Assembly: GCA_027482905.1 (NCBI GenBank)
Contig: JAIXVP010000130.1
Span: forward strand, 1-33,410
DNA length: 33,410 bases
Direction: 5' to 3'
From: Opitutaceae bacterium
GTDB taxonomy: Bacteria; Verrucomicrobiota; Verrucomicrobiia; Opitutales; Opitutaceae
Positions 1 through 23,086 of this stretch are shown piece after piece (position 1 is the first letter of the stretch; each line of letters starts with the position of its first letter). The position numbers were made by a program, and so were the translations under genes. The notes under the pieces are model-generated. The model had not been told where the DNA came from. It saw nothing but the letters and a program-made list of their open reading frames with translations, and did no database searches.

Positions 1-1025
1 CGGTCGCGGGCGAGTCCGGCGATGCGGATGCCGTTGATCAAGACGATGCCGAACAAACCTAGCACGGTGAGACTTCCCAAAAATCCCTTCTCCTCGGCGA
101 TGACGGAGAAGATAAAATCATTGTGCGCGACGGCGCGCGGCAGGTAGCCCAGCTGGGCCTGCGTTCCCTCGGTCCAGCCCTTGCCGGTCAAGCCGCCGCT
201 GCCGACCGAAATGAGCGATTGGCGCTGGTTCCAGCCTATGCCCATCGGGTCGATCTTGTCCGGGGCGATGAAGCTGACGATGCGGTTGCGCTGGTAATCC
301 TTCAGCGGCACCCAGGAGACCGCCTCGTAGCGGCCGCGGTCCTTCTGGTAGGACAACTTGTTCGCATCCATGAAGTTCATGTAGCGTCCCATATCCCAGG
401 AAACCACCGCCACGAGGATCGTGAACGCGCCGAGCGCCCCCGCGAAAAAACGGGTCGAGAGCCGGGAAACGTAAAGCATGGAAAAAACCATGGGGGGCAG
501 AACGATGGCCGACTTGAGGTCCGGCTGGAGGAGAATCAGCAACATGGGCCCGCCCGCCGCAAGGGCCAACTTCCCCAAAGTGCCCAAGGATTGACGGATG
601 GAGCCCAAACGCGCCCCGACCAAAAGCGACGCGGTGGCGAACAACACCGCCGCCTTAGCCGGCTCGCTCGGCTGCACCGCCAGAATCCCGAGGTCCAGCC
701 AGCGCTGCGCCCCGTAGCGCTCCTGCCCCACCCCGGGCAGCAAGACCAAGATCAACAACAACAAGCACGCCAGGTAGAACCAGTGCCACACGCTCAGCCA
801 GAAACGGTAATCGACGAGCGAGACGACGAGGTAGACGCCCGCGCCCGCCCCCAGCCAGACGAGTTGACTGATCCAGTTGGATAGCGGGGTGGAAAACTGC
901 GCCGAGTAGATGAAGGCCACCCCGATCGCGCTCAACCCGGCGAGGGCCAGCGGCGTCCACGGATCCCAGCGCTCGCGCGTGCTGGTCTTGAAGACACTGA
1001 GGTAGGCGCTGGCGTCGCTAAGCAT
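1..1025 (-). CDS. rodA: RodA, SEDS-family peptidoglycan glycosyltransferase (3' end outside window)
   Basis: RodA polymerises lipid II into glycan strands during lateral wall growth, working in the inner membrane with a class B PBP and MreBCD. Reading the minus strand from ATG at 1025 gives 341 uninterrupted codons to the left edge, so the C-terminus is missing. Visible family marks are an N-terminal cytoplasmic stretch followed by several hydrophobic helices, the segment GAQRWLDLGILAVQPSEPAK (about residues 100-120), and near the edge the periplasmic-loop motif NDFIFSVIAEEKGFLG. The R...QPSEPAK signature is typical of RodA/FtsW/SpoVE. RodA is preferred over FtsW because of the overall form of these motifs; FtsW is the alternative. 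It is divergent from the exported-protein block that starts at 1247. Confidence 0.93.
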   Translation of the reverse strand, partial: MLSDASAYLSVFKTSTRERWDPWTPLALAGLSAIGVAFIYSAQFSTPLSNWISQLVWLGAGAGVYLVVSLVDYRFWLSVWHWFYLACLLLLILVLLPGVGQERYGAQRWLDLGILAVQPSEPAKAAVLFATASLLVGARLGSIRQSLGTLGKLALAAGGPMLLILLQPDLKSAIVLPPMVFSMLYVSRLSTRFFAGALGAFTILVAVVSWDMGRYMNFMDANKLSYQKDRGRYEAVSWVPLKDYQRNRIVSFIAPDKIDPMGIGWNQRQSLISVGSGGLTGKGWTEGTQAQLGYLPRAVAHNDFIFSVIAEEKGFLGSLTVLGLFGIVLINGIRIAGLARD

Positions 1026-1246
1026 GGGTGACGCGCAAACTCCACGCGGAGCGCCCCGGGCGCAAGTGCGGGTTGAAGGGCTGCCTTGCGGGGATGGCTC
1101 CCTTCGCCGCCAGCGAATCCACGCTCAATTGAATCCGTTCATTTTACTGGATGATTTCGGGTAGGTTTACGGACTACATTAAAAAACACCAAGGATATTC
1201 AGGTAACTACTTATCTAAATCGTAGCCGATAACCCAAAATCTGAAC
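1026..1246. other. Divergent intergenic region rodA / exported-protein block
   Basis: These 221 bp separate rodA (minus) from the secreted-protein genes (plus) and must hold promoters for both unless the genes are read from elsewhere. The half next to 1247 is visibly AT-richer (about 1130-1230) than the flanking genes. I see no convincing -35/-10 pair, operator palindrome or Shine-Dalgarno sequence. Confidence 0.4.
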
Positions 1247-1657
1247 ATGCACCGCACCTCACGCTTAACCTTGGCCATGCTGTCCTGCGCCTGCTTTTCC
1301 GCTTCTTCGCTGAACGCGGCGGACGCTCCTGTTTCTCCCCTGTCGGCTCGTTCAGACCTTGCCCTTGCCGAAACCGCCGAAGCACGCGCGGAGGACGCGC
1401 TGCTGGAACTGAAATCGCAGGGCGGCAAATCCGCCTCCAGCGACACGCTGGCCGCCGCTCACGAACGCATCCTCCTGGCCCGCGCCGCCACCGGACGCGC
1501 CAAAATCCGTCTCGCAGCCGCCACCCACCGCAGCGACCCGGAGTCTCGCGCCCTCCGCAAAGCCCTGCTGGCCGCCCCCACTCCCGAAGCCCGTCGCGCC
1601 GTCCTCGCCCGACACCTCGCCGTCGGCAAGGCGCTCGAAAATGAAACCGCCCGATAA
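1247..1657 (+). CDS. Small exported alpha-helical protein of unknown function
   Basis: This is a 136-aa protein I do not recognise. It begins with a clear Sec-type signal (MHRTSRLTLAMLSCACFSASSLNA, cleavage probably after NAADA or nearby; the two Cys do not form a clean lipobox). The mature part is about 110 residues, very Ala/Arg/Glu/Leu-rich and predicted helical, possibly coiled coil, with no Cys and no membrane segment. It is the first gene of the exported-protein block. Its end overlaps the longest possible start of the next gene by 17 bp, or lies 22 bp upstream of the preferred start at 1680, which suggests co-transcription. The antisense frames here are high-GC shadows. The reading is supported by the signal peptide and the gene spacing only. 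Confidence 0.6.
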   Translation: MHRTSRLTLAMLSCACFSASSLNAADAPVSPLSARSDLALAETAEARAEDALLELKSQGGKSASSDTLAAAHERILLARAATGRAKIRLAAATHRSDPESRALRKALLAAPTPEARRAVLARHLAVGKALENETAR

Positions 1658-1679
1658 ACGCCTTCTCCCGGCCCTACCC

Positions 1680-2588
1680 ATGCCCAATTCCGCTCCATCC
1701 ACCCCGGTGTGCTTTCGGTTGTTGATCTCGCTCGCCGCGGTCACCGCATCGATTTTCGCACAGCAAAAAGTCTCCACCACCAGCAGCTCGGTGGCGTTGA
1801 ACACCCCCCAGTTTTTGTGGTTTACGAATCAAAACGCCCTTCGCTTCGGGACCGTGTCCAACACGGCGCCATGGAGCACCGCGAACCTCGGCGCCTATAG
1901 TCTCGCCTTTGGCCAGGATGCCGAAGCGTCCGGCGCGGGCTCTTTTGCTTTTGGTCAGGGCGCCAGCGCCGCCGGTCAAAATTCCTTCGTTTTCGGCCCT
2001 TACGCTCGCGCGAGCCACTACTCGATCGCGATGGGGCAGTCCGCTTACGCCGACGTATCCTCGATCGTGCTCGGCGAAAACGGCAACGCCGATTCCGGCG
2101 GCACCCAATTGGGGGGCTCCGGCATGGCCATCGCACCCGGTGCGATCTCGCTCGGCGAAAGCTTCGCCGTCGCACCCTATTCGTTCAGCGCGGTCTACTG
2201 CGGCGGCGCCTATGGTTTCGGCTCCATCGGCATCGGCGTGGAATCGTGGGCGGAGGGCGACTATTCGGTCTCTCTCGGCGCAGGCGCCTATGCCAAGGCC
2301 TGGGGCGGCATCGCCCTGGGCATGGGCAATGTCGCCAAACGCAAAAACGGCGCCGCCATCGATTCCGAAAACCCGGCGTCGGACGACGCCATTTTCGAGG
2401 TCGCCCGGCCGGATCCCGCACTCGGCATCGATCCCGTCGGCGGCATGCCGCCGGAGCGGGGCGAAAACGCCCTGACCATCTACCGGGACGGGGACATTCA
2501 CGCGGTCGGCGCCGTGCGCGTTCCGCGCAGAGGGAATCTCTCCATGGGCGCGTTTCAGGCCAAACCCGCCGGCGTCGCCTACCCCTGA
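1680..2588 (+). CDS. Exported YadA-head-like beta-roll protein without a membrane anchor
   Basis: The product is 302 aa from ATG 1680. That start puts a hydrophobic signal segment (CFRLLISLAAVTASIFAQ) at the N-terminus; an in-frame ATG at 1641 would add 13 residues and overlap the previous gene. From about residue 65 to 220 the protein shows roughly nine short repeats of about 14 residues with alternating small residues, e.g. AYSLAFGQDAEASGAGSFAFGQ split across two units. This is the 'S.A.G..A.A.G' pattern of YadA/Hia left-handed parallel beta-roll heads, which trimerise. The segment after it (DDAIFEVARP...ENALTIYRDGDIHAVGAV) resembles the conserved tail of bacterial and phage beta-roll proteins of the 'VGNG...NALTV..DG' kind. 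The usual C-terminal 12-strand-forming YadA anchor and a long stalk are absent, so it is probably a soluble or wall-associated trimer. Function unknown. Confidence 0.72.
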   Translation: MPNSAPSTPVCFRLLISLAAVTASIFAQQKVSTTSSSVALNTPQFLWFTNQNALRFGTVSNTAPWSTANLGAYSLAFGQDAEASGAGSFAFGQGASAAGQNSFVFGPYARASHYSIAMGQSAYADVSSIVLGENGNADSGGTQLGGSGMAIAPGAISLGESFAVAPYSFSAVYCGGAYGFGSIGIGVESWAEGDYSVSLGAGAYAKAWGGIALGMGNVAKRKNGAAIDSENPASDDAIFEVARPDPALGIDPVGGMPPERGENALTIYRDGDIHAVGAVRVPRRGNLSMGAFQAKPAGVAYP

Positions 2589-2598
2589 ACCGCCCCAG

Positions 2599-5322
2599 AT
2601 GCGCGTCCGCTTTCCCCGCCTGTTTGCGTGGCCGTTGTTCCTCGGCCTGCCCCTCGTCTCCGCCCTTCATGGCGGGGGGATGATAAATCCGCCGCCCGCC
2701 GAGGGCCCGGCTTGGTGGCGCACCCGCGGTGTGCTGCTGCTTGGAGCCGAGCCCGATGACTACGCGGTGCTAAACCAGGGGCAGCTCAAGCAACTCGCCT
2801 CCGCCGCCGTTGCGGAATTGAACGCCTCCCTGCCGGGCGGGGCCGGCCCCACCTTGGCCGCCACGGTCGCTGCGTGGACGCCTCCTCCCGCCGATGCCGA
2901 CGATTACGCCGCCGTGAATCAGGGTCAGCTCAAATACCTCGCCTCGCTCATTTATGATCGGCTCGCGACCGCGGGTCTCGCCACAGGCCGGCCGTGGGAG
3001 GATTCACCCCATCAGGCCGATGACTACGCCCTCGCCAACCAAGGTCAGGCCAAGATGCTCTTCAACTTCGACGTGGCGCATCCCCGGACGCTCGGCGGCT
3101 CCTTTGCGACCACCACCATCACGCTCGATGCCGCTTCCGCCACCGGCTATCAGACGTGGATCGCCCAGTTTCCCCTCGTCACGCAGCGCGACTACCTCGA
3201 TTCACCGGCCGGCGACGGCGTCAGCAACCTGCTGAAATACGCCCTCGGCCTTTCCCCTGCTCAAAATGCCGGCACGGTGCTGCCGACGGTGGTGTTTCGC
3301 CCCGTGAACGGGGTGACGCACGCGGGCCTCGCCTTTCAATGGCCCGTCACCCTGCGACCGGAACTTGGCTATCAACTGGAAACGACGACCAATTTTAGCT
3401 CGTGGTCTGTGGTCGCAAACCCCATCGAGCTGTCGGAAACCAACGGCGTGCCCGCCGGGTTTAGGCGCATCGTGCTGCTCGATCCCGCACCCTTTTCGGG
3501 GACGATTTTTTTCCGCCTCCGGGTGACGCTAGCCCACGCCGCGGATCCGACGTTCCTGACCCTGCCCGCCAGACCGACCAACGCCCCCGGTATCTTTATC
3601 TCGGAGGGTGTTCGCCTGGGTTTCGATCTGAGCGCGCTGGCCACGTTGCCCGGGCAAATCCGGCTCTACTCCCGCCCGACGGGAGGGGGAACCGCTTGGA
3701 CGCCACTCGGACGGCTCCGTTCCGACAGCTTTCGCGAACGGCTGGGGGTCAGGTTTTTTGCCGGTAGCGCCGTTTGGCTGCCGGATACACCGGGAACCTA
3801 CGAGATTTTCGCCTCCGCCCTGGATGCCGACGGCACTCCCTTCGCCGGGAACCTGCGATCGGTCAACATCTTGGCCGATCCGGTAAGTCAGACGCGGGTA
3901 ACGGCGTTAGCGTGGTTGTGGGAAGGAGCGGGACCCGATCCCGTCTCGGGTGGCGCGGGCACCGTGAGCAATCCCTTGGTTACGTCCGGGCCGATCTCCT
4001 TTTCGATTGGGAACATCGCCGGGTTGCCTGAATCGCCCCAAACCATCGGTCGCGTCGAATACTACGACAATGGCGAGCTTTGGGGCGTGGACTACTGGGG
4101 ACCCGACTACCTGACTCTCGGTCATCCCTACTTCGACAGCCAATCCCAACTCGACAACGGGTATGGCGTGCTGGACAAGAACCTGCATGCGATCACGGTC
4201 AAGGTATACACCCCCGAAGGTTTGTTGATCGGCACGGGCGGCGCCCCCTACTACGTGCGGGTGGACTCGGGCAACCGGCGCCCCTTGCTCACCCTGCCCC
4301 CGTCGGAACTCAAAAAGACGGTCGTCGCGGGCTCACCGTTGACGATCACCGCCACCGCGACCGATCCCGACGCGGACCAAAGCGTCAAAAATTACCACTG
4401 GCAGGTGATTTGTTCGCCCGACTTTTACACCCCGACCGGTTCCGAACCATTTACCAGCAATCTAGTGGTGGATACGGCTCCCTGGCCCGCCGGTCAGTAT
4501 TTGTTAAAACTCTGGGTGACAGATTCGGTAGACGGGAAAAGCTATCCGCGCTATATCGAAGTGGAAGCCCTACCCCAGGCAGGGGCGGCAAGTCTGCCCG
4601 CCCAGCTCGCGGCCGCGATCGTCGATCCGGCGACGATCACCATCTCCAACGTGAACTATCGTGGCGTAGCCGCCGCCGCCACCACCTTTAGCGGCGGACT
4701 GGCTGCGGGCTTGGAAATGGACGAGGGGGTGGTTCTGACCGCGGGGTTGGCGGAAAAGTGGAACGCAGGGAATCGGCTTTTCAATACTGGGAGTCCAAGC
4801 CCCCACCCACTTTCATGCATAGACATCGTGATGGCCCGACAAGCCGGGGACCGCACACACGATCTGGGTCTTCTGGATTTCGATTTCCAGTGCATAAGTG
4901 GCCAGCTTGAGGTCGCCTACCAGTTTGGCTCGGAGGAATATGTAGAGTATATAGATAGTTACAATGACGCCATCCAAATTCAAATCAATGGGCGAACGGT
5001 ATCTCTCAATCCAGACGCCGAACAAGCAGTTGCCGTAAACACCGTGCACCGCTTTATTGCGAGTAGCGAGCGGGCGTCAGCAAATCCCGGTGCCGATATA
5101 GCCGCCGATCACGAGTATCTTTACTTCGACAACACCCATTTGATCGAACCCGGAAAAATCGAATACGACGGCATGGTGGTGAAGCTAAAAGCCTATATAT
5201 TCCTGAGCCCTAATCCCATGCGCCGGCATCATGCACGGCTAGGAGTGGCCGACACAAAAGATCGCGTATTTGATACCGCCCTATTTATCAAAAAACAGGG
5301 TTTCACCTCAAGCACCCCATGA
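2599..5322 (+). CDS. Large exported protein: NQGQLK repeats, PKD-like domain, choice-of-anchor L domain
   Basis: 907 aa with an N-terminal signal (RLFAWPLFLGLPLVSALHG). Three copies of a DDYA..NQGQLK motif begin at residues 53, 101 and 141 (nt 2755, 2899, 3019); I recall this motif from N-termini of large secreted verrucomicrobial proteins. A long beta-rich middle follows, with a Trp-rich segment and Ig-like strands. About 560-655 is PKD/cadherin-like, with the acidic loop TDPDADQS. About 662-907 fits the choice-of-anchor L domain: the LAAAIVDPATITISNVNY start, the strongly conserved YQFGSEEYVEYIDSYNDAI core, and the GVADTKDRVFDTALFIKK end. Choice-of-anchor domains are normally followed by a PEP-CTERM or other sorting tail; this protein stops right after the domain. 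Its TGA overlaps the next ATG (ATGA), so the PEP-CTERM protein at 5319 is translationally coupled. GC falls in the last 500 bp. Ligand unknown; probably extracellular adhesion or matrix. Confidence 0.78.
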   Translation: MRVRFPRLFAWPLFLGLPLVSALHGGGMINPPPAEGPAWWRTRGVLLLGAEPDDYAVLNQGQLKQLASAAVAELNASLPGGAGPTLAATVAAWTPPPADADDYAAVNQGQLKYLASLIYDRLATAGLATGRPWEDSPHQADDYALANQGQAKMLFNFDVAHPRTLGGSFATTTITLDAASATGYQTWIAQFPLVTQRDYLDSPAGDGVSNLLKYALGLSPAQNAGTVLPTVVFRPVNGVTHAGLAFQWPVTLRPELGYQLETTTNFSSWSVVANPIELSETNGVPAGFRRIVLLDPAPFSGTIFFRLRVTLAHAADPTFLTLPARPTNAPGIFISEGVRLGFDLSALATLPGQIRLYSRPTGGGTAWTPLGRLRSDSFRERLGVRFFAGSAVWLPDTPGTYEIFASALDADGTPFAGNLRSVNILADPVSQTRVTALAWLWEGAGPDPVSGGAGTVSNPLVTSGPISFSIGNIAGLPESPQTIGRVEYYDNGELWGVDYWGPDYLTLGHPYFDSQSQLDNGYGVLDKNLHAITVKVYTPEGLLIGTGGAPYYVRVDSGNRRPLLTLPPSELKKTVVAGSPLTITATATDPDADQSVKNYHWQVICSPDFYTPTGSEPFTSNLVVDTAPWPAGQYLLKLWVTDSVDGKSYPRYIEVEALPQAGAASLPAQLAAAIVDPATITISNVNYRGVAAAATTFSGGLAAGLEMDEGVVLTAGLAEKWNAGNRLFNTGSPSPHPLSCIDIVMARQAGDRTHDLGLLDFDFQCISGQLEVAYQFGSEEYVEYIDSYNDAIQIQINGRTVSLNPDAEQAVAVNTVHRFIASSERASANPGADIAADHEYLYFDNTHLIEPGKIEYDGMVVKLKAYIFLSPNPMRRHHARLGVADTKDRVFDTALFIKKQGFTSSTP

Positions 5323-6017
5323 AAATCCGTTTTACCACACGATTCACGCTCCCAGCTATCTTAGCCCTAACTCCGCTTTTTGGCAATAGGCTGCACGCCT
5401 TGGTTGTAGATTCATTTGTCGATGGTCCATTTTACGCCGAAACATCGATCAACAGCCCTTTGGCTACATTGCGCCAAGCGACCCTAGGGCCAAGAACGAT
5501 TCCTGCGGCGGACACGCTTCAAGGCACTGCGGATGCAAGCGAAGGTTCATTTACCTTTTACTCACACGACACGACGCCCGATGTGCCGTGGAAGAATCAT
5601 TACATTCAAATTAGCTATATTAATATAGTAGGCATTTTCGACGCCAGTCTCTACAATGCCTTCACTTTCGACTTCACCGACCTAGTCGGCACCGGCGACC
5701 TCGTCGTTGAAATCGGGTTTGGGCCGTCCATTTACAATACAACAACGCTCAGCACCCCGATCACCGAGCCGGGCTGGCTGGCGGTGCCGATGGAGGCCAT
5801 AAACTACAGCTCACGCGGCGGCGATACGCTGAATGCCTTCAAGTCGATCCACTTCACCTTCCGCGCGACCAGCCCAACCTTCGGCTTCACGCTGAATGAG
5901 ATCGCCCTCACCAAGGTGCCCGAGCCGGCCAGCGCCGCCGCTCTGCTTGGTGTCACCGTGCTTGCCGCCGCCACCCTTCGCCGCAGAAGGCGCGGCAATC
6001 GATACACGGGTATCTGA
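5319..6017 (+). CDS. PEP-CTERM sorting-domain protein, copy 1
   Basis: 232 aa. It starts with a signal peptide (basic MKIRFTTR, then the hydrophobic LPAILALTPLFGN, about 25 residues). The 170-residue mature part is beta-rich and has no recognised domain. It ends with the PEP-CTERM tripartite tail: VPEPASAAALLG, a short hydrophobic helix, then RRRRR. In this family the tail directs export followed by cleavage and sorting by an exosortase; none is encoded in the window. Unusually, eight further residues (GNRYTGI and neighbours) follow the Arg cluster. It overlaps the choice-of-anchor L gene by 4 bp. The first two thirds are AT-richer than the last third. It is paralogous along its whole length to the gene at 6224-6904. 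Confidence 0.82.
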   Translation: MKIRFTTRFTLPAILALTPLFGNRLHALVVDSFVDGPFYAETSINSPLATLRQATLGPRTIPAADTLQGTADASEGSFTFYSHDTTPDVPWKNHYIQISYINIVGIFDASLYNAFTFDFTDLVGTGDLVVEIGFGPSIYNTTTLSTPITEPGWLAVPMEAINYSSRGGDTLNAFKSIHFTFRATSPTFGFTLNEIALTKVPEPASAAALLGVTVLAAATLRRRRRGNRYTGI

Positions 6018-6029
6018 ATTTCGAAACCC

Positions 6030-6227
6030 CGCTACTTTTTTTACGCCTATGGATGCGGTAGATTCAAAACGAATGGCATGGTGGTAAAACTAAAGTCCTA
6101 CGTCTTTTTCGCCTCAAACCCTACACGCTACCGTCATGTTCGGATGGGCGTAGCTGATACAAGAGATCCATACTTCGACTCCGCCCTCTTTATTAAAAGG
6201 CAGGGTTTTACTTCAAGCACCCCATGA
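6030..6227 (+). pseudogene. Duplicated 3' remnant of the choice-of-anchor L gene
   Basis: Between the two PEP-CTERM genes, an open frame ending at TGA 6225-6227 encodes a C-terminus that matches the end of the 907-aa protein almost residue for residue. Examples are NGMVVKLKSYVFFASNP (against DGMVVKLKAYIFLSPNP) and GVADTRDPYFDSALFIKRQG (against GVADTKDRVFDTALFIKKQG), with the same terminal GFTSSTP. Similarity is strong from 6075 onward and fades upstream towards about 6030. No start codon or upstream domain is present, so it is a gene fragment. Its TGA overlaps the ATG of the second PEP-CTERM gene exactly as in the parent (ATGA), which shows that the 3' end and the following gene were duplicated as a unit. 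Confidence 0.85.
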
Positions 6228-6904
6228 AACCTCGTTTTCTAACGCTCGCCGCTGCGGGCCTACTTGGCGTCCTACCCTGTGCGGGCATGAAATCATTGGT
6301 CGTGGATACATTCACCGAGGGGCCGTTTTATCCAAATCAGACATCCATCAGCGGGCCTTTTGCGAACTCACGCCAAGTGACACTAGGACCGCGAAAGACT
6401 CCGGCTGAGGATACTCTCATGGTTAGGTCGGACCAAGGCGAAGGTTTGTTTACTTTTTACTCCCACGACACTACACCCGCAGTGCCTTGGCAAAATCTCT
6501 ATATTCAAATTTTCTATATCAATCTAGCTACATTCGACGCCAGCCCCTACGACTCCTTTGCCTTCGACTTTAGCGACCTTATCGGCACTGGCGACTTGGT
6601 CATCGAAATCGGTTTTGGTCCATCTTTCTATAACGAAACGACCTTGAGCACTCCTATCACCGAACCAGGCTGGCTAGAAGTGCCGATGGAGGCGATAAAC
6701 TACAGCCCACGCGGCGGCGATACGCTAAATACGTTTCATACGATCCACTTCACCTTCCGCGCGACCAGCCCGACCTTCGGCTTCACGCTGAATGAGATCG
6801 CCCTGACCACGGTGCCCGAGCCGGCCAGCGCCGCCGCGCTGCTCGGCGGCGCCGCCGGCGTGCTAACCCTGCTGCATCGCCGCCCCCGCCGACCGGCAGG
6901 ATAA
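6224..6904 (+). CDS. PEP-CTERM sorting-domain protein, copy 2
   Basis: 226 aa, paralogue of the protein at 5319-6017. It has a signal peptide (MKPRFLTLAAAGLLGVLPCAG) and a beta-rich body sharing long stretches with copy 1, e.g. FTFYSHDTTPAVPW and FGFTLNEIAL. The C-terminal tail is VPEPASAAALLGG, a short hydrophobic helix, then HRRPRRPAG, i.e. a standard PEP-CTERM ending without the extra residues of copy 1. The start is fixed by the signal peptide and by the ATGA overlap with the upstream gene remnant. The last 200 bp are much closer to copy 1, and more GC-rich, than the first 450 bp. Presumably exported and processed at the cell surface by an exosortase encoded elsewhere. No enzymatic function is visible. 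Confidence 0.82.
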   Translation: MKPRFLTLAAAGLLGVLPCAGMKSLVVDTFTEGPFYPNQTSISGPFANSRQVTLGPRKTPAEDTLMVRSDQGEGLFTFYSHDTTPAVPWQNLYIQIFYINLATFDASPYDSFAFDFSDLIGTGDLVIEIGFGPSFYNETTLSTPITEPGWLEVPMEAINYSPRGGDTLNTFHTIHFTFRATSPTFGFTLNEIALTTVPEPASAAALLGGAAGVLTLLHRRPRRPAG

Positions 6905-6922
6905 GTTGGCCCCGCCTGCTCG

Positions 6923-8209
6923 TCACTCCATCCCAAACGCCCGCCGCAGCTCCGCCAGCGCGCTGTCCGGCATCGGCACCAATGGACCCAGCGGGCGGCT
7001 GAGTTGCAGGGCCTCCGCCGTCGCCTCCAGCACCTCCAGCCGATCAAAAGCCTCCAGCAGGGTGCGGCCCACGATGAGCGCGCCCTCGTTTTCGATCAGC
7101 AGGACCGGACACCGCCGGATCGACATGCGCGCCGCCAGCGCCTCCGCGTCCCGCGCCACGCAGGCGAAGGGCACTTTCGGCGCATCCCCTAGCACCAGAT
7201 AACTTTCCGGGATAGTGCGGCTGGAGAAGTCCGCCGCCGACATACAGAACGCGCTCGCGCACATCGGCTGCGCGTTAATTACCGCGCCGACATCCGGATT
7301 CGCCGCGTAGATGAGCCCGTGCAGGCGGCTGACCCGGCTGGCGCGTTTGCCCGCCTCGGCGGCTGTCGCCGTCGCCCGGACGAGGCTGCCCGGCTGCAAG
7401 TTGAGCCGATCCCGCCGGCGTGGCGTGATCACAAACCCGTCGGCGTCGAGCCGGGCCGAGATCGCACCCGCCGTGCTGATCATCAGGCGCTGGCGGTAGG
7501 CGCGGTGCGCAAAGGCGCAAACTTCGCCGCGCAGCTCGCGTTCGCGGTGGGTCACCGGCGCCGGGGCGAGCTCGCCCATCTCGGGCACGGCGAGCCCGGC
7601 GAGGTTGTTCTCCGGCAGGGTGCGCAGGCCGCCCAAGGCCGAGGCGCGAATCACGGTTTGGGCGACAAACTCGAGGGTCTCGAAGCGTTGAAACGCCTCC
7701 GCCAGATCGCGCCCGCCGATCACGACGCCGTGGTTCTCCAGCATCACGCAGTCCGCGCCGCCGGCGAAGGCCTCGGCGATTTTCGCCCCGAGCTCCTCGC
7801 TGCCCGGACAGGCGTAGGCGGCGTAGGCGATGCGCCCGCAAAGCTGGTGGCCGTGGGTCTGCACCCGCGTCTCGGGCAGGCGGCGCACGATGCTAAAGGC
7901 GACCAGCGCGCCGGGATGCGCATGGACGATGGCCTTGAGATCGGGCCGGCGCCGGTAGATTTCGCGATGGAAGGGAAACTCGGAGGACGGTGGATGCAGG
8001 CCCTCGCGGGTGCCGTCGGCCGCCACCCGCACGATGTCGGCGGCGCGCAGGGAGCCCTTGTCCACCCGCGAAGGCGTTATCCAGATGGAGCCGTCGGGAT
8101 CGAGGATGGAGAGATTTCCCCCTGAGGTGGTCGTCATGTGGTAGCGATAGATGCGGTCCATCGTCGCCACCATTTCGTCGCGGGGATGCAGCCAATTCTG
8201 GGAGTCCAT
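6923..8209 (-). CDS. Tandem class II aldolase/adducin-type protein, second domain degenerate
   Basis: 428 aa from ATG 8209, chosen because the class II aldolase homology begins there. Residues 1-200 form a complete class II aldolase domain. They have the acid/base Glu77, the Zn ligands His96 and His98 in VHAHPG, and His160 in ENHGVVIGG, spaced as in L-fuculose-1-phosphate aldolase. Such enzymes cleave or epimerise phosphorylated sugars, or act as a decarboxylase or dehydratase. Residues 220-428 repeat the same fold ([33 protein letters not shown]), but all three His ligands and the Glu are replaced (Asn312, Gln314, Glu375, Val293). The second half is therefore probably structural or regulatory. 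The substrate cannot be predicted. The gene is divergent from the cyclophilin gene, and no kinase or isomerase lies nearby. Confidence 0.85.
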
Positions 8210-8380
8210 GCGGACGAGTTTCCGCGTCACTCGCCGGGGGGTCAAAGCCTTGCCAATCCGCGCCCCGGCTTGGCCAAAAAACGCCCACGCCGCCCACACC
8301 TTGGCAACCTTCCCCGCCGGGCGAGGTCGGATTCGACACCGCGCCTCCCCCACCCCACCCTCCTTTCCCGCTCCCCACCC

Positions 8381-9034
8381 ATGAAATCCACCTCGCTCCT
8401 CCGTCGCCTGCTCGGCGTCTTCGCCCTCTCGCTCCTCGCCGCCCCCCTCGGCCTCGTCGCCGAAGAGGCCGCGCCCGCCGAGGCCAAACCCGCCGTCGTG
8501 GCGCCCACGCCCGCCCCGCCCGCGCCGGCCGCCATCACGGATATCCGCATCGTGGTGAAAACCGACAAGGGCGACATCGAAGGCGTGATCTACGCCTCCA
8601 AAGTTCCAGTGACCGCGGCCAACTTCCTCAATCTCGCCAAACGCGGTTACTACGACGGCCTGACTTTCCACCGCGTAATCCCCGACTTCATGATCCAGGG
8701 CGGCGACCCGCGCGGCAACGGCACCGGTGGTCCCGGCTACCAGTTCGCGGACGAGTTCCATCCAGCGCTCCGCCACTCAAAGCCCGGTATTTTCTCGATG
8801 GCCAACGCCGGCCCCGGCACAAACGGCAGCCAGTTCTTCATCACCCACGTCGCCACCCCCTGGCTCGACGGCAAACACAGCGTCTTCGGCGCCGTCACCA
8901 AAGGCCAGACCACGGTCAACGCCATCGCCAAAGGCGACAAGATCCTGAAGATCGAGGTCCTCGACCCGACCGACACCCTCTTCGCCGCCCAGGCCGAAAA
9001 CCTGGCAAAGTGGAACGCGGTGCTGAAGAAGTAG
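8381..9034 (+). CDS. Exported cyclophilin-type peptidyl-prolyl cis-trans isomerase
   Basis: 217 aa from ATG 8381. A signal peptide ([18 protein letters not shown]) and an Ala/Pro-rich linker of about 25 residues precede a compact bacterial cyclophilin domain (about 52-205). Active-site residues are present: Arg98, Phe103 and Gln106 in [14 protein letters not shown], Gln151 and Phe152 in GSQFFIT, Trp161 and His166 in [10 protein letters not shown]. It catalyses X-Pro isomerisation, here presumably on periplasmic proteins or as a lipid-free outer-compartment chaperone. A longer frame opens upstream at 8138, but it overlaps the divergent aldolase gene and lacks a signal sequence. The 171-bp spacer 8210-8380 must contain the promoters. 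It converges on the minus-strand gene ending at 9060. Confidence 0.93.
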
Positions 9035-17798: not shown

Positions 17799-18923
17799 TT
17801 AACTTATACGCACGGGCATCACTACGCATACGAAGTTTGCATCCGTCTTAATCACCCCGGGGCTAACCTCGTCCTTTAGTTCAAAGTAAACTTCATCCTT
17901 GGCCAACGCACGCAAAGGATCGATGATAAATTGCGGATTAAACGCGACTTGGAGCTCAGGGCCGCTGTAGGCAATCGCCATGGTTTCGTGCGCTTCGCCG
18001 AAATCCGGACTGCTTGCACTGATTTCCAAGTGATTGTTGGTCAGCTTTAACTTCACCGAATTGCTCTTGTCGGAACAAACCAACGCCGCGCGGTGCACAC
18101 ATTCCAGCAACAGTTCCCGTTCCAATTTAATCCGTTGGTGGGTTTCTTTGGGAATCACCTGTTGGTAGTTAGGGTAATTTCCCTCCACCACTTTGCTGTA
18201 TAAATAAATTGCATCGATCAGTCCGGATTCGGGGTTATCTGCATGAATCTGAAACGCGGCCCTGCGATCATTAAACGATACCTTCAATTTTTCTCCCTTG
18301 TCCAACATTCTTAACAATTCCGAAACTGTCTTCGCGGGCAAGATAATCGCGCCCGCTTTGTCGGCGGGAACATCAAGCTCTTTATTTATAAGCGCCAGAC
18401 GACGACCATCGGTGGCAACCAAAGCAAGTTTGCCATCTCGGAAATTAAAATACACCCCATTTAGTATATAACGGGTCTCATCGGTTGATTGCGCATAGGC
18501 CACGCTTTTCAACATGCCCGTCAACTCGACTTGTTCCAAGGTGAATGTCTTATCATCACCGAAGTCGGGAAGCGGGGGAAATTCCTCCTTGCCGATTCCC
18601 ATTATCCGGAAGACGGAGCCACCAGAAGACAACTTTACCTGGTGGTTGGGTGAAGCGTCAAAAGAAACATCGATTTGAGGCAGTTCACGAACGATCCCCG
18701 CCAACCTTTTGACGGGAAGCGTCACGGCTCCGGTTTCCTTGACCTCTGCCTTTATCTTCGCACGAATGCCAAGATCTAAATTAGTGGTGGTGAGCGTAAT
18801 ACCATCTTTTTCCGCCTCGATCAGAACGTTGCTTAGAATCGGCATCGTCGCTTTTGAACCGACCACGTTGAGCACCTGGGCCAGGCCGTTGCTGAAGTGA
18901 TCGCGATTGATCTTGAATTTCAT
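17799..18923 (-). CDS. dnaN: DNA polymerase III sliding clamp (beta subunit)
   Basis: 374 aa, a normal length for DnaN. The dimeric ring clamps DNA and tethers the replicative polymerase, ligase and MutS. Family landmarks are the N-terminal [32 protein letters not shown], the domain 2 segment [26 protein letters not shown], and the C-terminal [12 protein letters not shown] with the end motif CVVMPVRIS (usually MPM.L/R at the very C-terminus). There is no dnaA next to it; instead 351 bp of AT-richer non-coding DNA lie upstream, followed by pssA. This departs from the common dnaA-dnaN order. Confidence 0.97.
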
Positions 18924-19274
18924 GGATGCGTCGAAATGGGGGCTGGGATGTCTTGAATCTGGTTCGTGCCGGCGGAGCAGAGCAAGGCTTGTCTTCGGTG
19001 GAAAGGGGAAAATGAAACCAATTACCGTTTGTTCGCAGGCTTGTTGGTTTATGTGTTTTAAAACTATTCTTCTTTATCTAAAATCATCACATCCTTAAGG
19101 GCGGTGAATAACTGCAATAAGACGCGTGTTTTAGAGGGCAAATGCTTCGTAAAATCCGGTGAGTGTTCTCGGTTTTTCATTTCGTGATCTCGAACTTATT
19201 CGTTCGTTTTGAATATGCCCAGGTTATTCACGTCATTTTCGTGGGGTTCATTCACCTATGGGAGCAACGGTCGT
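18924..19274. other. 351-bp non-coding region upstream of dnaN; candidate replication origin
   Basis: I find no credible gene here. The stretch is AT-richer than most of the window, with AT-rich tracts near 19050-19090 and 19180-19230. It contains two inverted nonamers close to the DnaA box TTATNCACA: TTATTCACC on the minus strand (19103-19111) and TTATTCACG on the plus strand (19224-19232), each 8/9. A weaker TCATTCACC is at 19248-19256. The position between dnaN (transcribed leftwards) and the mnmE/mnmG/parS segment on the right suits an origin. Without a full box cluster or a visible DNA-unwinding element it could equally be the dnaN promoter region alone. Confidence 0.35.
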
Positions 19275-20510: not shown

Positions 20511-20707
20511 GATCGCTCAAATAATCGATGTCATTCAACCATGGCAAGACTTGGCGGTTGGTCGCACGGGGATTGACCCATGATGGTCGGTATCCGATTT
20601 CGTTCGAGATTTCTGATGTAAAATGTTTGAGAATAAATGTTAAAGTATTATTCTTTTATGCGATTTCAAGGCGTATCGTTTGATCGTTGCGATATCGTGG
20701 GGAATCG
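20511..20707. other. Divergent intergenic region between the pssA operon and the ABC importer
   Basis: This 197-bp region serves both directions. The right half (20600-20690) is strongly AT-rich and contains the candidate promoter at 20627-20654. I see no inverted repeat typical of a LacI-type sugar operator. Confidence 0.4.
20627..20654 (+). promoter_or_regulatory. Candidate sigma70-type promoter for the ABC importer
   Basis: TTGAGA (20627-20632), a 16-bp AT-rich spacer, then TATTCT (20649-20654), 53 bp before the chosen start codon at 20708. Each hexamer has two mismatches to consensus, so this is a weak match supported mainly by its position in an AT-rich stretch. Confidence 0.3.
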
Positions 20708-23086
20708 ATGCAACGTCCGGGCGTAGCTTCCATGGTCTCGTTTCGCCTTCTTTGTTTATTTCTGGTATCCATAGTATGGGTTCGGACGGCAACGTCCGAG
20801 GTGGTATTGGATATACCTGTTTTGGTTGCCGGTTATGGTTCCGAGTTTTTCCAAGAGACGGCCCGTGATTTCGAGGGTCACCGCCCTGGAGTTCGTATCA
20901 ATCTACATGGCGATCCTCGCATCAACGATCGGGTCCGCACGCGGGTGATGGCGGGTGTTTTGCCCGATGCCACGGATGCAGTCTTGCTTTATCAAAAATT
21001 GATCGACAGCGGCCAGATCCTAGATTTGGGAACCGCATTGGCCGGGCCAAATTGGGAAAACACCGGTGTATGGCGGGATGATTTTCGCCCCGGGGTTTTG
21101 TCTAGATGGACGGTTCCGGACCCCGGCGGTAGTCAACCGCCTGCGATCTATGGTTTACCCTTTGCCCATGCCGTATGGGTTCTGTTTTACGACAAGGCGC
21201 GGTTTCGGCGTGAAGGTTGGGCGCCTCCCGGAACCTGGGACCGCTTTTTCGCGCTTTGCGAGTCCATGGAGGCGCGGGGCGTGGCGCCGCTATCCCTTCC
21301 CGGCGTTGCCATGCGTTATGGCGACGCGATCCTGCGCGCGGCCCATTACAATCTGGTCGGAGAAGCGGGATACGTCGATTTCCGAGATTTGGTGCCGGGC
21401 GCGCGGACCGACCCCCGTTTTATCCGTGCGGCGGGGATTCTGGAACGGGTGGCCAACCGTCATCTGGTCCGCGGTTGGGAGGGCATGACCCACACCGCCG
21501 CGCAATTGGAGTTCATCGAAGGGCGGTGCGCGATGACGCTCTCCGCCTCGTGGTTCGCCAACGAGATGCGCGGTCGGATGCCGGCCGGGTTCGAGCTCGG
21601 CGCGATGAATCTTCCGGTGTTCGACGACGGTATCGCTTCACCGGATACGGTTCAATCGCAGAGCGGCTACTATTTCCTGTTTCGCACCGGCGATCCCGAG
21701 CGGGAACGCGCGACCGTCGATTTTTTCCGGTTCATGACCTCTCGCGAAAGGGTGCGACGATTTGTCGAGCTGACGGATTCGCCGGTCGCCTTGCGCGGGG
21801 CCGCCCCCACCGATTATTCGGCGAGGATGGCGGATACGGCCGCCCTGCTGGAACGCAGTCCGGCTTCCTTCGACGCCGCGCCGGCTCGCACCTCGGTCGC
21901 CCAAGGGACGCTTGCGCAGGCGTTTACCGACGCCCGTTATCAGCTGATGACCGGCCGCATTTCCGCGGTGGATTTCGGGGCGCGACTCGAGGCGGCCGCG
22001 AGGTCGGAACGGGACCGCGCGACGGATCCCGGCCATATCGAAAAGCGTCATCCTCTCGCGGCCATTACCTTGGGGCTTTTGCTGTTCGCCGCCTGTCTCT
22101 GGCTTGTCCGCCCCTTCTGGCGGCCCAGGGGCCGTTTGACCGCGTCTTCCGGGGCAAGCGGTTTGGCGCCCTTGCGTCGTGGCTTCGGGGCGCTGTTTAT
22201 CGGGCCGGCGTTTGTTCTTTATGCGGCATTTGTGCTTTTACCGGCGCTGGCCGCCTTTGCGCTTTCGTTTTTTCGTTGGGATGGAATCGGGGCTCCGGAC
22301 TGGGTTGGGGGTTTCAATTTCCGTTGGTTGTTGCTCGAGAGCGACGTCTTTTGGTCTGCTTTGCGAAACAATGGCTTTCTAATGATCGTCCCGCCGTTGT
22401 TTGTGGTCCCGTTGTCGTTGGCGCTGGCCGTTTTTATTCACCGGGGCGGGAGGAGTGCGGGATTTATCCGCGTGGTGCTGCTTTTTCCCAATCTTCTGGG
22501 TGGAATCGCGGCGGCTTTGATCTGGATGGCGGCCTACGAACCGACTTCCGGTTTCGTTAATTCGGCGTTTCTTGCCGCCGGTGATTTAATTGCGTTTGTC
22601 GGCGGCCCCGATGCTCTTGCGCGTTGGTTTTATGGTTTCCGCGGCTATGCGTGGCTGGCGCAGTCGAATCTCTACGGTTCATTGGTCCCCATCTATCTCT
22701 GGATGGCGTGCGGTTTTAATCTGGTGCTCTACCTCGCTGCGATGCAGGGCGTGCCGGACGAGCTATACGAGGCTGCGGAGCTCGACGGCGCGTCGCCATT
22801 GCGTCAGTTCTTTTCCATCACGCTCCCGTTGATCCGGGGCGTGATGACGGTTTCGGCGGTCTTTTTGGTGATCGGCGGGTTAAACGCCTTCGAGCTCGTC
22901 TGGCTGCTTACCGCGCAGGACCCGTCGGCGGGCACCCACACGCTTGGCACCTTCATGGTGGGAACGCTTTTTGGCGAGTTTCAGGCCGGACGTGCGGCGG
23001 CCATCGCGGTCATTCTGTTTGTGCTGGTCTTGGTGGGTTCGCTGGCGGTTCTGCGGCTGAGCCGGACCGAGGGAGAAAACCAATGA
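20708..23086 (+). CDS. Sugar ABC transporter: solute-binding protein fused to MalF-type permease
   Basis: 792 aa from ATG 20708, preceded by GGGGA 5 bp upstream; starts at 20687 and 20732 are possible. A signal-like helix (FRLLCLFLVSIVWV) is followed by a family 1 extracellular solute-binding domain, about residues 30-430 (IYGLPFAHAVWVLFYDKARF, GRCAMTLSASWFANEMR, GYYFLFRTGDPERERATVDFFRFM). A linker then leads to a first TM helix (LAAITLGLLLFAACLWLV), a short basic cytoplasmic loop, and a MalF-like permease domain with the EAA loop EAAELDGASPLRQFFSITLPL near residue 690. The topology is consistent: the binding domain sits in the periplasm and the extra helix returns the chain to the cytoplasm before the permease core. 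It overlaps the MalG-type gene by 4 bp. No ATPase gene is nearby, as is usual for CUT1 systems sharing one ATPase. Substrate probably a carbohydrate. Confidence 0.88.
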   Translation: MQRPGVASMVSFRLLCLFLVSIVWVRTATSEVVLDIPVLVAGYGSEFFQETARDFEGHRPGVRINLHGDPRINDRVRTRVMAGVLPDATDAVLLYQKLIDSGQILDLGTALAGPNWENTGVWRDDFRPGVLSRWTVPDPGGSQPPAIYGLPFAHAVWVLFYDKARFRREGWAPPGTWDRFFALCESMEARGVAPLSLPGVAMRYGDAILRAAHYNLVGEAGYVDFRDLVPGARTDPRFIRAAGILERVANRHLVRGWEGMTHTAAQLEFIEGRCAMTLSASWFANEMRGRMPAGFELGAMNLPVFDDGIASPDTVQSQSGYYFLFRTGDPERERATVDFFRFMTSRERVRRFVELTDSPVALRGAAPTDYSARMADTAALLERSPASFDAAPARTSVAQGTLAQAFTDARYQLMTGRISAVDFGARLEAAARSERDRATDPGHIEKRHPLAAITLGLLLFAACLWLVRPFWRPRGRLTASSGASGLAPLRRGFGALFIGPAFVLYAAFVLLPALAAFALSFFRWDGIGAPDWVGGFNFRWLLLESDVFWSALRNNGFLMIVPPLFVVPLSLALAVFIHRGGRSAGFIRVVLLFPNLLGGIAAALIWMAAYEPTSGFVNSAFLAAGDLIAFVGGPDALARWFYGFRGYAWLAQSNLYGSLVPIYLWMACGFNLVLYLAAMQGVPDELYEAAELDGASPLRQFFSITLPLIRGVMTVSAVFLVIGGLNAFELVWLLTAQDPSAGTHTLGTFMVGTLFGEFQAGRAAAIAVILFVLVLVGSLAVLRLSRTEGENQ

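What the first reader, a model, noticed from the sequence alone, without database searches (positions are those of the whole stretch)
5171..6904. Tandem duplication that kept an ATGA coupling: gene tail plus PEP-CTERM gene
The last ~50 codons of the choice-of-anchor L gene and the whole PEP-CTERM gene occur twice in tandem (5171-6017 and about 6030-6904). The second copy of the big gene survives only as a 3' fragment, yet its stop codon still overlaps the next start as ATGA. Either the fragment is a plain relic, or it keeps a short coupling leader that delivers ribosomes to the second PEP-CTERM gene.
Basis: seen in the sequence. Interest (0 to 1): 0.65.

Follow-up and report, generated by a model that had tools for sequence, protein, structure and literature searches.

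The report
Displaced gene tail with surface-protein partner
A bacterial surface-protein operon carries, behind its intact last two genes, an older and quite different version of the same pair (only the last 49 codons of the big gene, then a whole second partner gene), and a sister species has the two versions in the opposite order, which suggests that such tail-plus-partner blocks are shuffled by recombination.

Summary
The repeat is real. The 3' tail of the anchorless choice-of-anchor-L gene (2599-5322) plus PEP-CTERM gene A (5319-6017) recurs as a 49-codon tail fragment (6078-6227) plus PEP-CTERM gene B (6224-6904), with ATGA kept at both junctions. It is not a recent or simple duplication. 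Tail and fragment, and A and B, differ at most synonymous sites (pS about 0.7 and 0.56), far more than this genome differs from its sister species (flank dS 0.25-0.35). A/B identity is patchy (about 40% to 95%) and follows a GC3 mosaic. Of 15 genomes in the genus only one other (G014, MAG WB9_2_209) has the units, at the same locus in the order B then A. Its fragment is a recombinant: codons 1-20 resemble the window's fragment, the rest and the start of PEP A match the window's full-length tail and PEP A. I read the second unit as a displaced tail-plus-partner module, as in rhs/cdi C-terminal displacement; ATGA travels with it. A selected coupling leader is possible but weakly supported (p about 0.035) and untested. 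Tail-then-partner order recurs in distant relatives of the same class. New variant of a known kind; moderate interest.

The parts
1247..1657 (+). small predicted secreted protein; first gene of the putative operon (its 5' part survives in the G011 deletion scar)
   Evidence: ORF; G011 joins window 1-1492 to 8019-9033
1641..2588 (+). YadA-head-repeat protein; a similar protein precedes the choice-of-anchor-L gene in G083
   Evidence: Pfam PF05658 E 1e-12; G083 ORF 2176-2820 (similarity seen by eye)
2599..5322 (+). anchorless choice-of-anchor-L protein, 907 aa; GC3 0.76 to about 4758, then 0.54 in the tail
   Evidence: NF038133 E 3e-38 at aa 670-902; GC3 blocks
5173..5322 (+). last 49 codons of the big gene, the stretch repeated as the fragment; C-terminal beta-strands of the domain
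   Evidence: AlphaFold2 model, residues 200-248 of the construct
5319..6017 (+). PEP-CTERM gene A, start overlapping the big gene's stop (ATGA)
6005..6077 (+). junction: end of PEP A passing into decayed, frame-shifted tail sequence; same junction in G014
   Evidence: window vs G014 local score 71, shuffle mean 17; alignment
6078..6227 (+). displaced tail fragment, 49-codon ORF ending in ATGA; no Shine-Dalgarno motif, no consensus promoter nearby
6224..6904 (+). PEP-CTERM gene B, the partner in the displaced module
5777..5936 (+). conserved GC-rich block in PEP A (88-95% identical to 6673-6832 in PEP B; dS 0.13 over codons 180-210), probable conversion or crossover site
6673..6832 (+). matching conserved GC-rich block in PEP B

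Best explanation
The second unit is a displaced tail-plus-partner module. The operon makes an exported choice-of-anchor-L protein without its own anchor and, from an overlapping start codon, a PEP-CTERM partner. The low-GC tail plus partner body behaves as an exchangeable block. A divergent block ended up downstream of the present one, keeping only the last ~50-73 codons of its tail and its whole partner gene. ATGA came along because tail end and partner start move as one piece. Shown: divergence, mosaic composition, same blocks in opposite order in a sister species, recombinant fragment there. Inferred: that displacement by recombination (as in rhs/cdi) rather than simple duplication made the first array; that the fragment's main effect is to give homology for recombination; that PEP B is still expressed, possibly by coupling to the fragment ORF.
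For: Tail/fragment pS 0.71, pN 0.18; PEP A/B dS about 1-2 outside the 3' block, 0.13 inside it. G000-G014 flanks dS 0.25 (rodA) and 0.35 (cyclophilin), but the shared PEP B stretch has dS 0.06 and the first 57 codons of PEP A no difference at all. G014 at the syntenic site has a PEP B body with an A-type 3' end, the same junction, a fragment whose codons 1-20 differ from tail A at 22/60 sites but codons 21-49 at 2/87 (Fisher 2e-8), then PEP A. That is the product expected if an excised circle [tail A 3' - PEP A - junction - fragment 5'] reinserted through the conserved 3' block of PEP B; two ordinary unequal crossovers would also do. GC3 mosaic: body 0.76, tail, fragment and PEP bodies 0.49-0.55, PEP 3' ends 0.80-0.82 (Fisher 2e-17 and 1e-11). 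Tail then partner recurs in G718 (homologous partner, BLASTP E 1e-10, TAA directly followed by ATG) and in five f24 genomes with another partner family. Published models: rhs, PMC2935791; cdi orphans, PMC6336857.
Against: Only two genomes carry the array, and G014's copy is broken (big gene not found in the genome, both PEP genes truncated, RAYT-like remnant and multi-copy repeats at its edges), so no expressed switch is seen. Both are fragmented assemblies; a short-read chimera inside the G014 array cannot be ruled out, although it sits exactly at the syntenic site. Low GC is a property of this tail/partner pair in the relatives looked at, so it does not prove foreign origin. The two blocks are homologous, so an old duplication followed by divergence and conversion fits nearly as well.
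Confidence: 0.5

Rival explanations
1. Old tandem duplication (partial, or full-length followed by deletion) whose copies diverged in place with occasional gene conversion; the fragment is a passive relic and ATGA is incidental.
For: Colinear repeat in direct tandem; conversion-like 3' block; fragment's upstream part decayed; G014's copy is decaying.
Against: Does not by itself explain the reversed order and recombinant fragment in G014, nor near-identity of the blocks across species while flanks differ.
Confidence: 0.3
2. The fragment is kept by selection as a short coupling leader: ribosomes ending at ATGA reinitiate on PEP B.
For: ATGA and the 23 nt around it are kept in all three junctions apart from two silent C/T sites; 49-codon frame intact in both species while the sequence just upstream is frame-shifted or stopped; fragment-fragment amino-acid changes 8 vs 11.1 expected, p about 0.035; no Shine-Dalgarno motif before PEP A or B; ATGA-type pairs are generally coupled (13 of 14 tested pairs in H. 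volcanii and E. coli, PMC6728339).
Against: 20 codons give little power; conversion from a functional tail could also keep the frame; the big gene, which is not overlapped, lacks a Shine-Dalgarno motif too, so its absence is not diagnostic; no start signal for the fragment ORF itself; short gaps (about 4-38 nt) rather than overlaps in several distant pairs.
Confidence: 0.15
3. Stop-codon read-through or frameshift fuses the fragment to PEP A or PEP B.
For: The frame from PEP A's TGA (6015) to 6227 is open in the window.
Against: G014 has TAA at the end of its first PEP gene and an in-frame TAA just before the fragment; PEP B begins with a signal-peptide-like stretch that a fusion would bury.
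Confidence: 0.02

Closest known systems
rhs C-terminal displacement (dissociated tips), Jackson et al. 2009, PMC2935791
   Same: Intact large gene followed by a dissociated 3' piece of an alternative version; conserved and variable parts with distinct GC; recombination through the fragment, with a circular intermediate proposed.
   Different: No toxin/immunity pair; the fragment is the end of a choice-of-anchor-L domain, not rhs core plus tip; the two tails are homologous (69% aa), and only two genomes are known.
Orphan cdiA-CT/cdiI modules downstream of cdi operons (PMC6336857)
   Same: Truncated 3' end of the big gene plus complete partner gene downstream; may recombine with the upstream gene.
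   Different: Partner carries a PEP-CTERM sorting signal and is not an immunity protein.
Termination-reinitiation at ATGA overlaps (Huber et al. 2019, PMC6728339)
   Same: ATGA overlap at both tail/partner junctions.
   Different: Upstream ORF of the second pair is a 49-codon remnant without an evident start signal; coupling not tested.
Choice-of-anchor-L domain proteins (NCBIfam NF038133) with PEP-CTERM sorting
   Same: Domain match above cut-off; PEP-CTERM signal nearby.
   Different: The anchor is in a separate overlapping gene; in G048 the same domain carries its own PEP-CTERM tail.

Membership tests
choice_anch_L (NF038133) | profile score over 27 bits | tested here: met
   big gene 131 bits; fragment 19.8 bits, not over cut-off
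PEP-CTERM protein | C-terminal sorting signal TIGR02595 over 16 bits | tested here: met
   PEP A 20.9, PEP B 18.2 bits; Pfam PF07589 below its cut-off for both
rhs/cdi-type C-terminal displacement | dissociated tail plus partner downstream of an intact gene | tested here: met
rhs/cdi-type C-terminal displacement | same tail seen attached in one genome and dissociated in another | tested here: inconclusive
   G014 has A downstream of B, the window has A attached; but G014 lacks the big gene
rhs/cdi polymorphic toxin | toxin tail and immunity partner | tested here: not met
   tail is choice_anch_L, partner has a PEP-CTERM signal
ATGA translational coupling | overlapping stop/start | tested here: met
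   5319-5322, 6224-6227
ATGA translational coupling | downstream translation depends on upstream translation | not testable with these tools
   needs reporter assay or ribosome profiling

The most novel reading that the evidence does not exclude
A non-toxin surface-protein operon uses rhs/cdi-like C-terminal displacement: tail plus anchored partner form a cassette that moves between lineages and is stored downstream with a truncated tail. Recombination through the fragment could swap the expressed tail and partner together, with ATGA keeping the new pair in translational register.
Probability: 0.3. Interest if true: 0.7.

Novelty: new variant of a known kind. Interest (0 to 1): 0.42.

Why it matters
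Displacement of gene tails with their partner gene is known mainly from toxin systems. Seeing the same architecture in an anchor-in-trans surface operon would mean that tail/partner shuffling is a more general way to vary bacterial surface proteins. It would also make a testable case of whether a leftover fragment can still couple translation.

Tried and rejected
Viral contigs: no relatives. Genome-contig scan: only the G014 record. Papers holding both 'choice-of-anchor' and 'PEP-CTERM': none. Read-through of PEP A into the fragment: rejected because of G014's stops. Promoter inside the junction: none by consensus. PEP A structure: low confidence (pLDDT 47). The choice_anch_L domain model (pLDDT 76) gave only weak matches to beta-sandwich folds such as CBM61/CBM35, none at E below 0.001. 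G129's apparent fragment and G718's C110 tail lie at contig edges, so they do not count as independent fragments. G188's second pair is on another contig, not shown to be tandem. Low GC as proof of import: rejected because the pair is AT-rich in all relatives looked at.

Full report
Observation. The repeat is real and significant: 798 aligned columns at 74% identity. The big gene 2599-5322 ends in a choice-of-anchor-L domain with no anchor after it, and PEP-CTERM gene A starts inside its stop codon (ATGA 5319-5322). Behind A stands a 49-codon ORF, 6078-6227, homologous to the last 49 codons of the big gene, and its stop overlaps the start of PEP-CTERM gene B (ATGA 6224-6227). In an AlphaFold2 model of the domain the fragment is its last few beta-strands, so it is unlikely to fold alone (inference).

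Age and mosaic. Tail and fragment differ at 25 of about 35 synonymous and 20 of about 112 non-synonymous sites; random placement of the same substitutions would change 26 codons instead of 15 (0 of 20,000 simulations as low). So most divergence happened under coding constraint, but this may predate truncation. PEP A and B have dS of about 1-2 over most of their length and 0.13 over codons 180-210. GC3 is 0.76 in the big gene's body, 0.49-0.55 in tail, fragment and PEP bodies, and 0.80-0.82 in the PEP 3' ends. The pair is also AT-rich against its surroundings in G718, G083, G169, G188 and G200, so low GC is a trait of the pair and not in itself proof of import.

Relatives. Of 15 genomes in the genus only this one and G014 (MAG WB9_2_209) have the units. 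The site lies between a rodA-like gene and a cyclophilin gene. G009 has these two genes next to each other; G006 has an unrelated gene (photolyase-like by eye) and the aldolase gene there; G011 has a deletion scar joining window 1-1492 to 8019-9033, so it once had at least both ends of the region. G014 has, in order, a 5'-truncated PEP B with an A-type 3' end, the same junction, a 49-codon fragment with the same ATG and ATGA, and the first 57 codons of PEP A, cut by what looks like a RAYT-type transposase remnant (by eye; the repeat at both edges is multi-copy in the genus). The G014 fragment is a recombinant with its breakpoint near codon 20. PEP A's 5' end is identical between the two species and PEP B has dS 0.06 where flanking genes have 0.25-0.35. 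These blocks have thus moved or been homogenised between lineages more recently than the flanks split.

Wider pair. The domain is rare: 5 of 141 relatives, 10 of 372 genomes of the order, 20 of 384 of the class. In G083, G169, G200 and G188 an anchorless domain protein is followed by a PEP-CTERM protein of another family, with overlap (G083) or short gaps; G129 shows the same order at a contig edge. In G718, outside the order, the tail is followed directly (TAA ATG) by a homologue of PEP A/B. In G048 the domain has its own PEP-CTERM tail. So the tail-partner order is older than this array; the array itself is known only from two genomes.

Mechanism. The simplest account of all this is displacement of an existing tail plus partner by an incoming or recombined one, as proposed for rhs (PMC2935791) and cdi (PMC6336857). 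G014's structure is what insertion of an excised circle carrying tail A 3', PEP A, junction and fragment 5' into PEP B's conserved 3' block would give; two unequal crossovers would give it too. An old duplication with conversion remains a serious rival. Coupling at ATGA is plausible from general knowledge (PMC6728339), and PEP A and B lack Shine-Dalgarno motifs, but so does the non-overlapped big gene. Post-truncation selection on the fragment has only weak support (p about 0.035 on 20 codons).

Verdict.

Noticed in passing
L066 (G011) about 1449-2254, vs window 1485-8025: Clean deletion in G011 removing the operon between the small first gene and the aldolase gene, at about 9 bp of shared sequence.
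   Followed up: partly
L025 (reverse complement about 5510 and 6470): Inverted TTTCTCGGCCYGACCCC repeats flank the G014 array; pairs about 1 kb apart recur in G009, G011 and G014, probably ends of a RAYT/REP-type element.
   Followed up: partly
window 17802-19073 (-): DNA polymerase III beta subunit gene in a stretch of low GC3 (0.55-0.60) compared with neighbours near 0.8.
   Followed up: no
window 20684-23083 (+): One ORF appears to fuse an extracellular solute-binding protein with an ABC permease domain.
   Followed up: no
window 6923-8776 (-): Protein with two class II aldolase/adducin stretches.
   Followed up: no
L068 (G048), L069 (G083): The same domain occurs with its PEP-CTERM anchor in cis (G048) or with the anchor in a separate overlapping gene (G083), an anchor-in-trans arrangement not found described in the searched papers.
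   Followed up: partly
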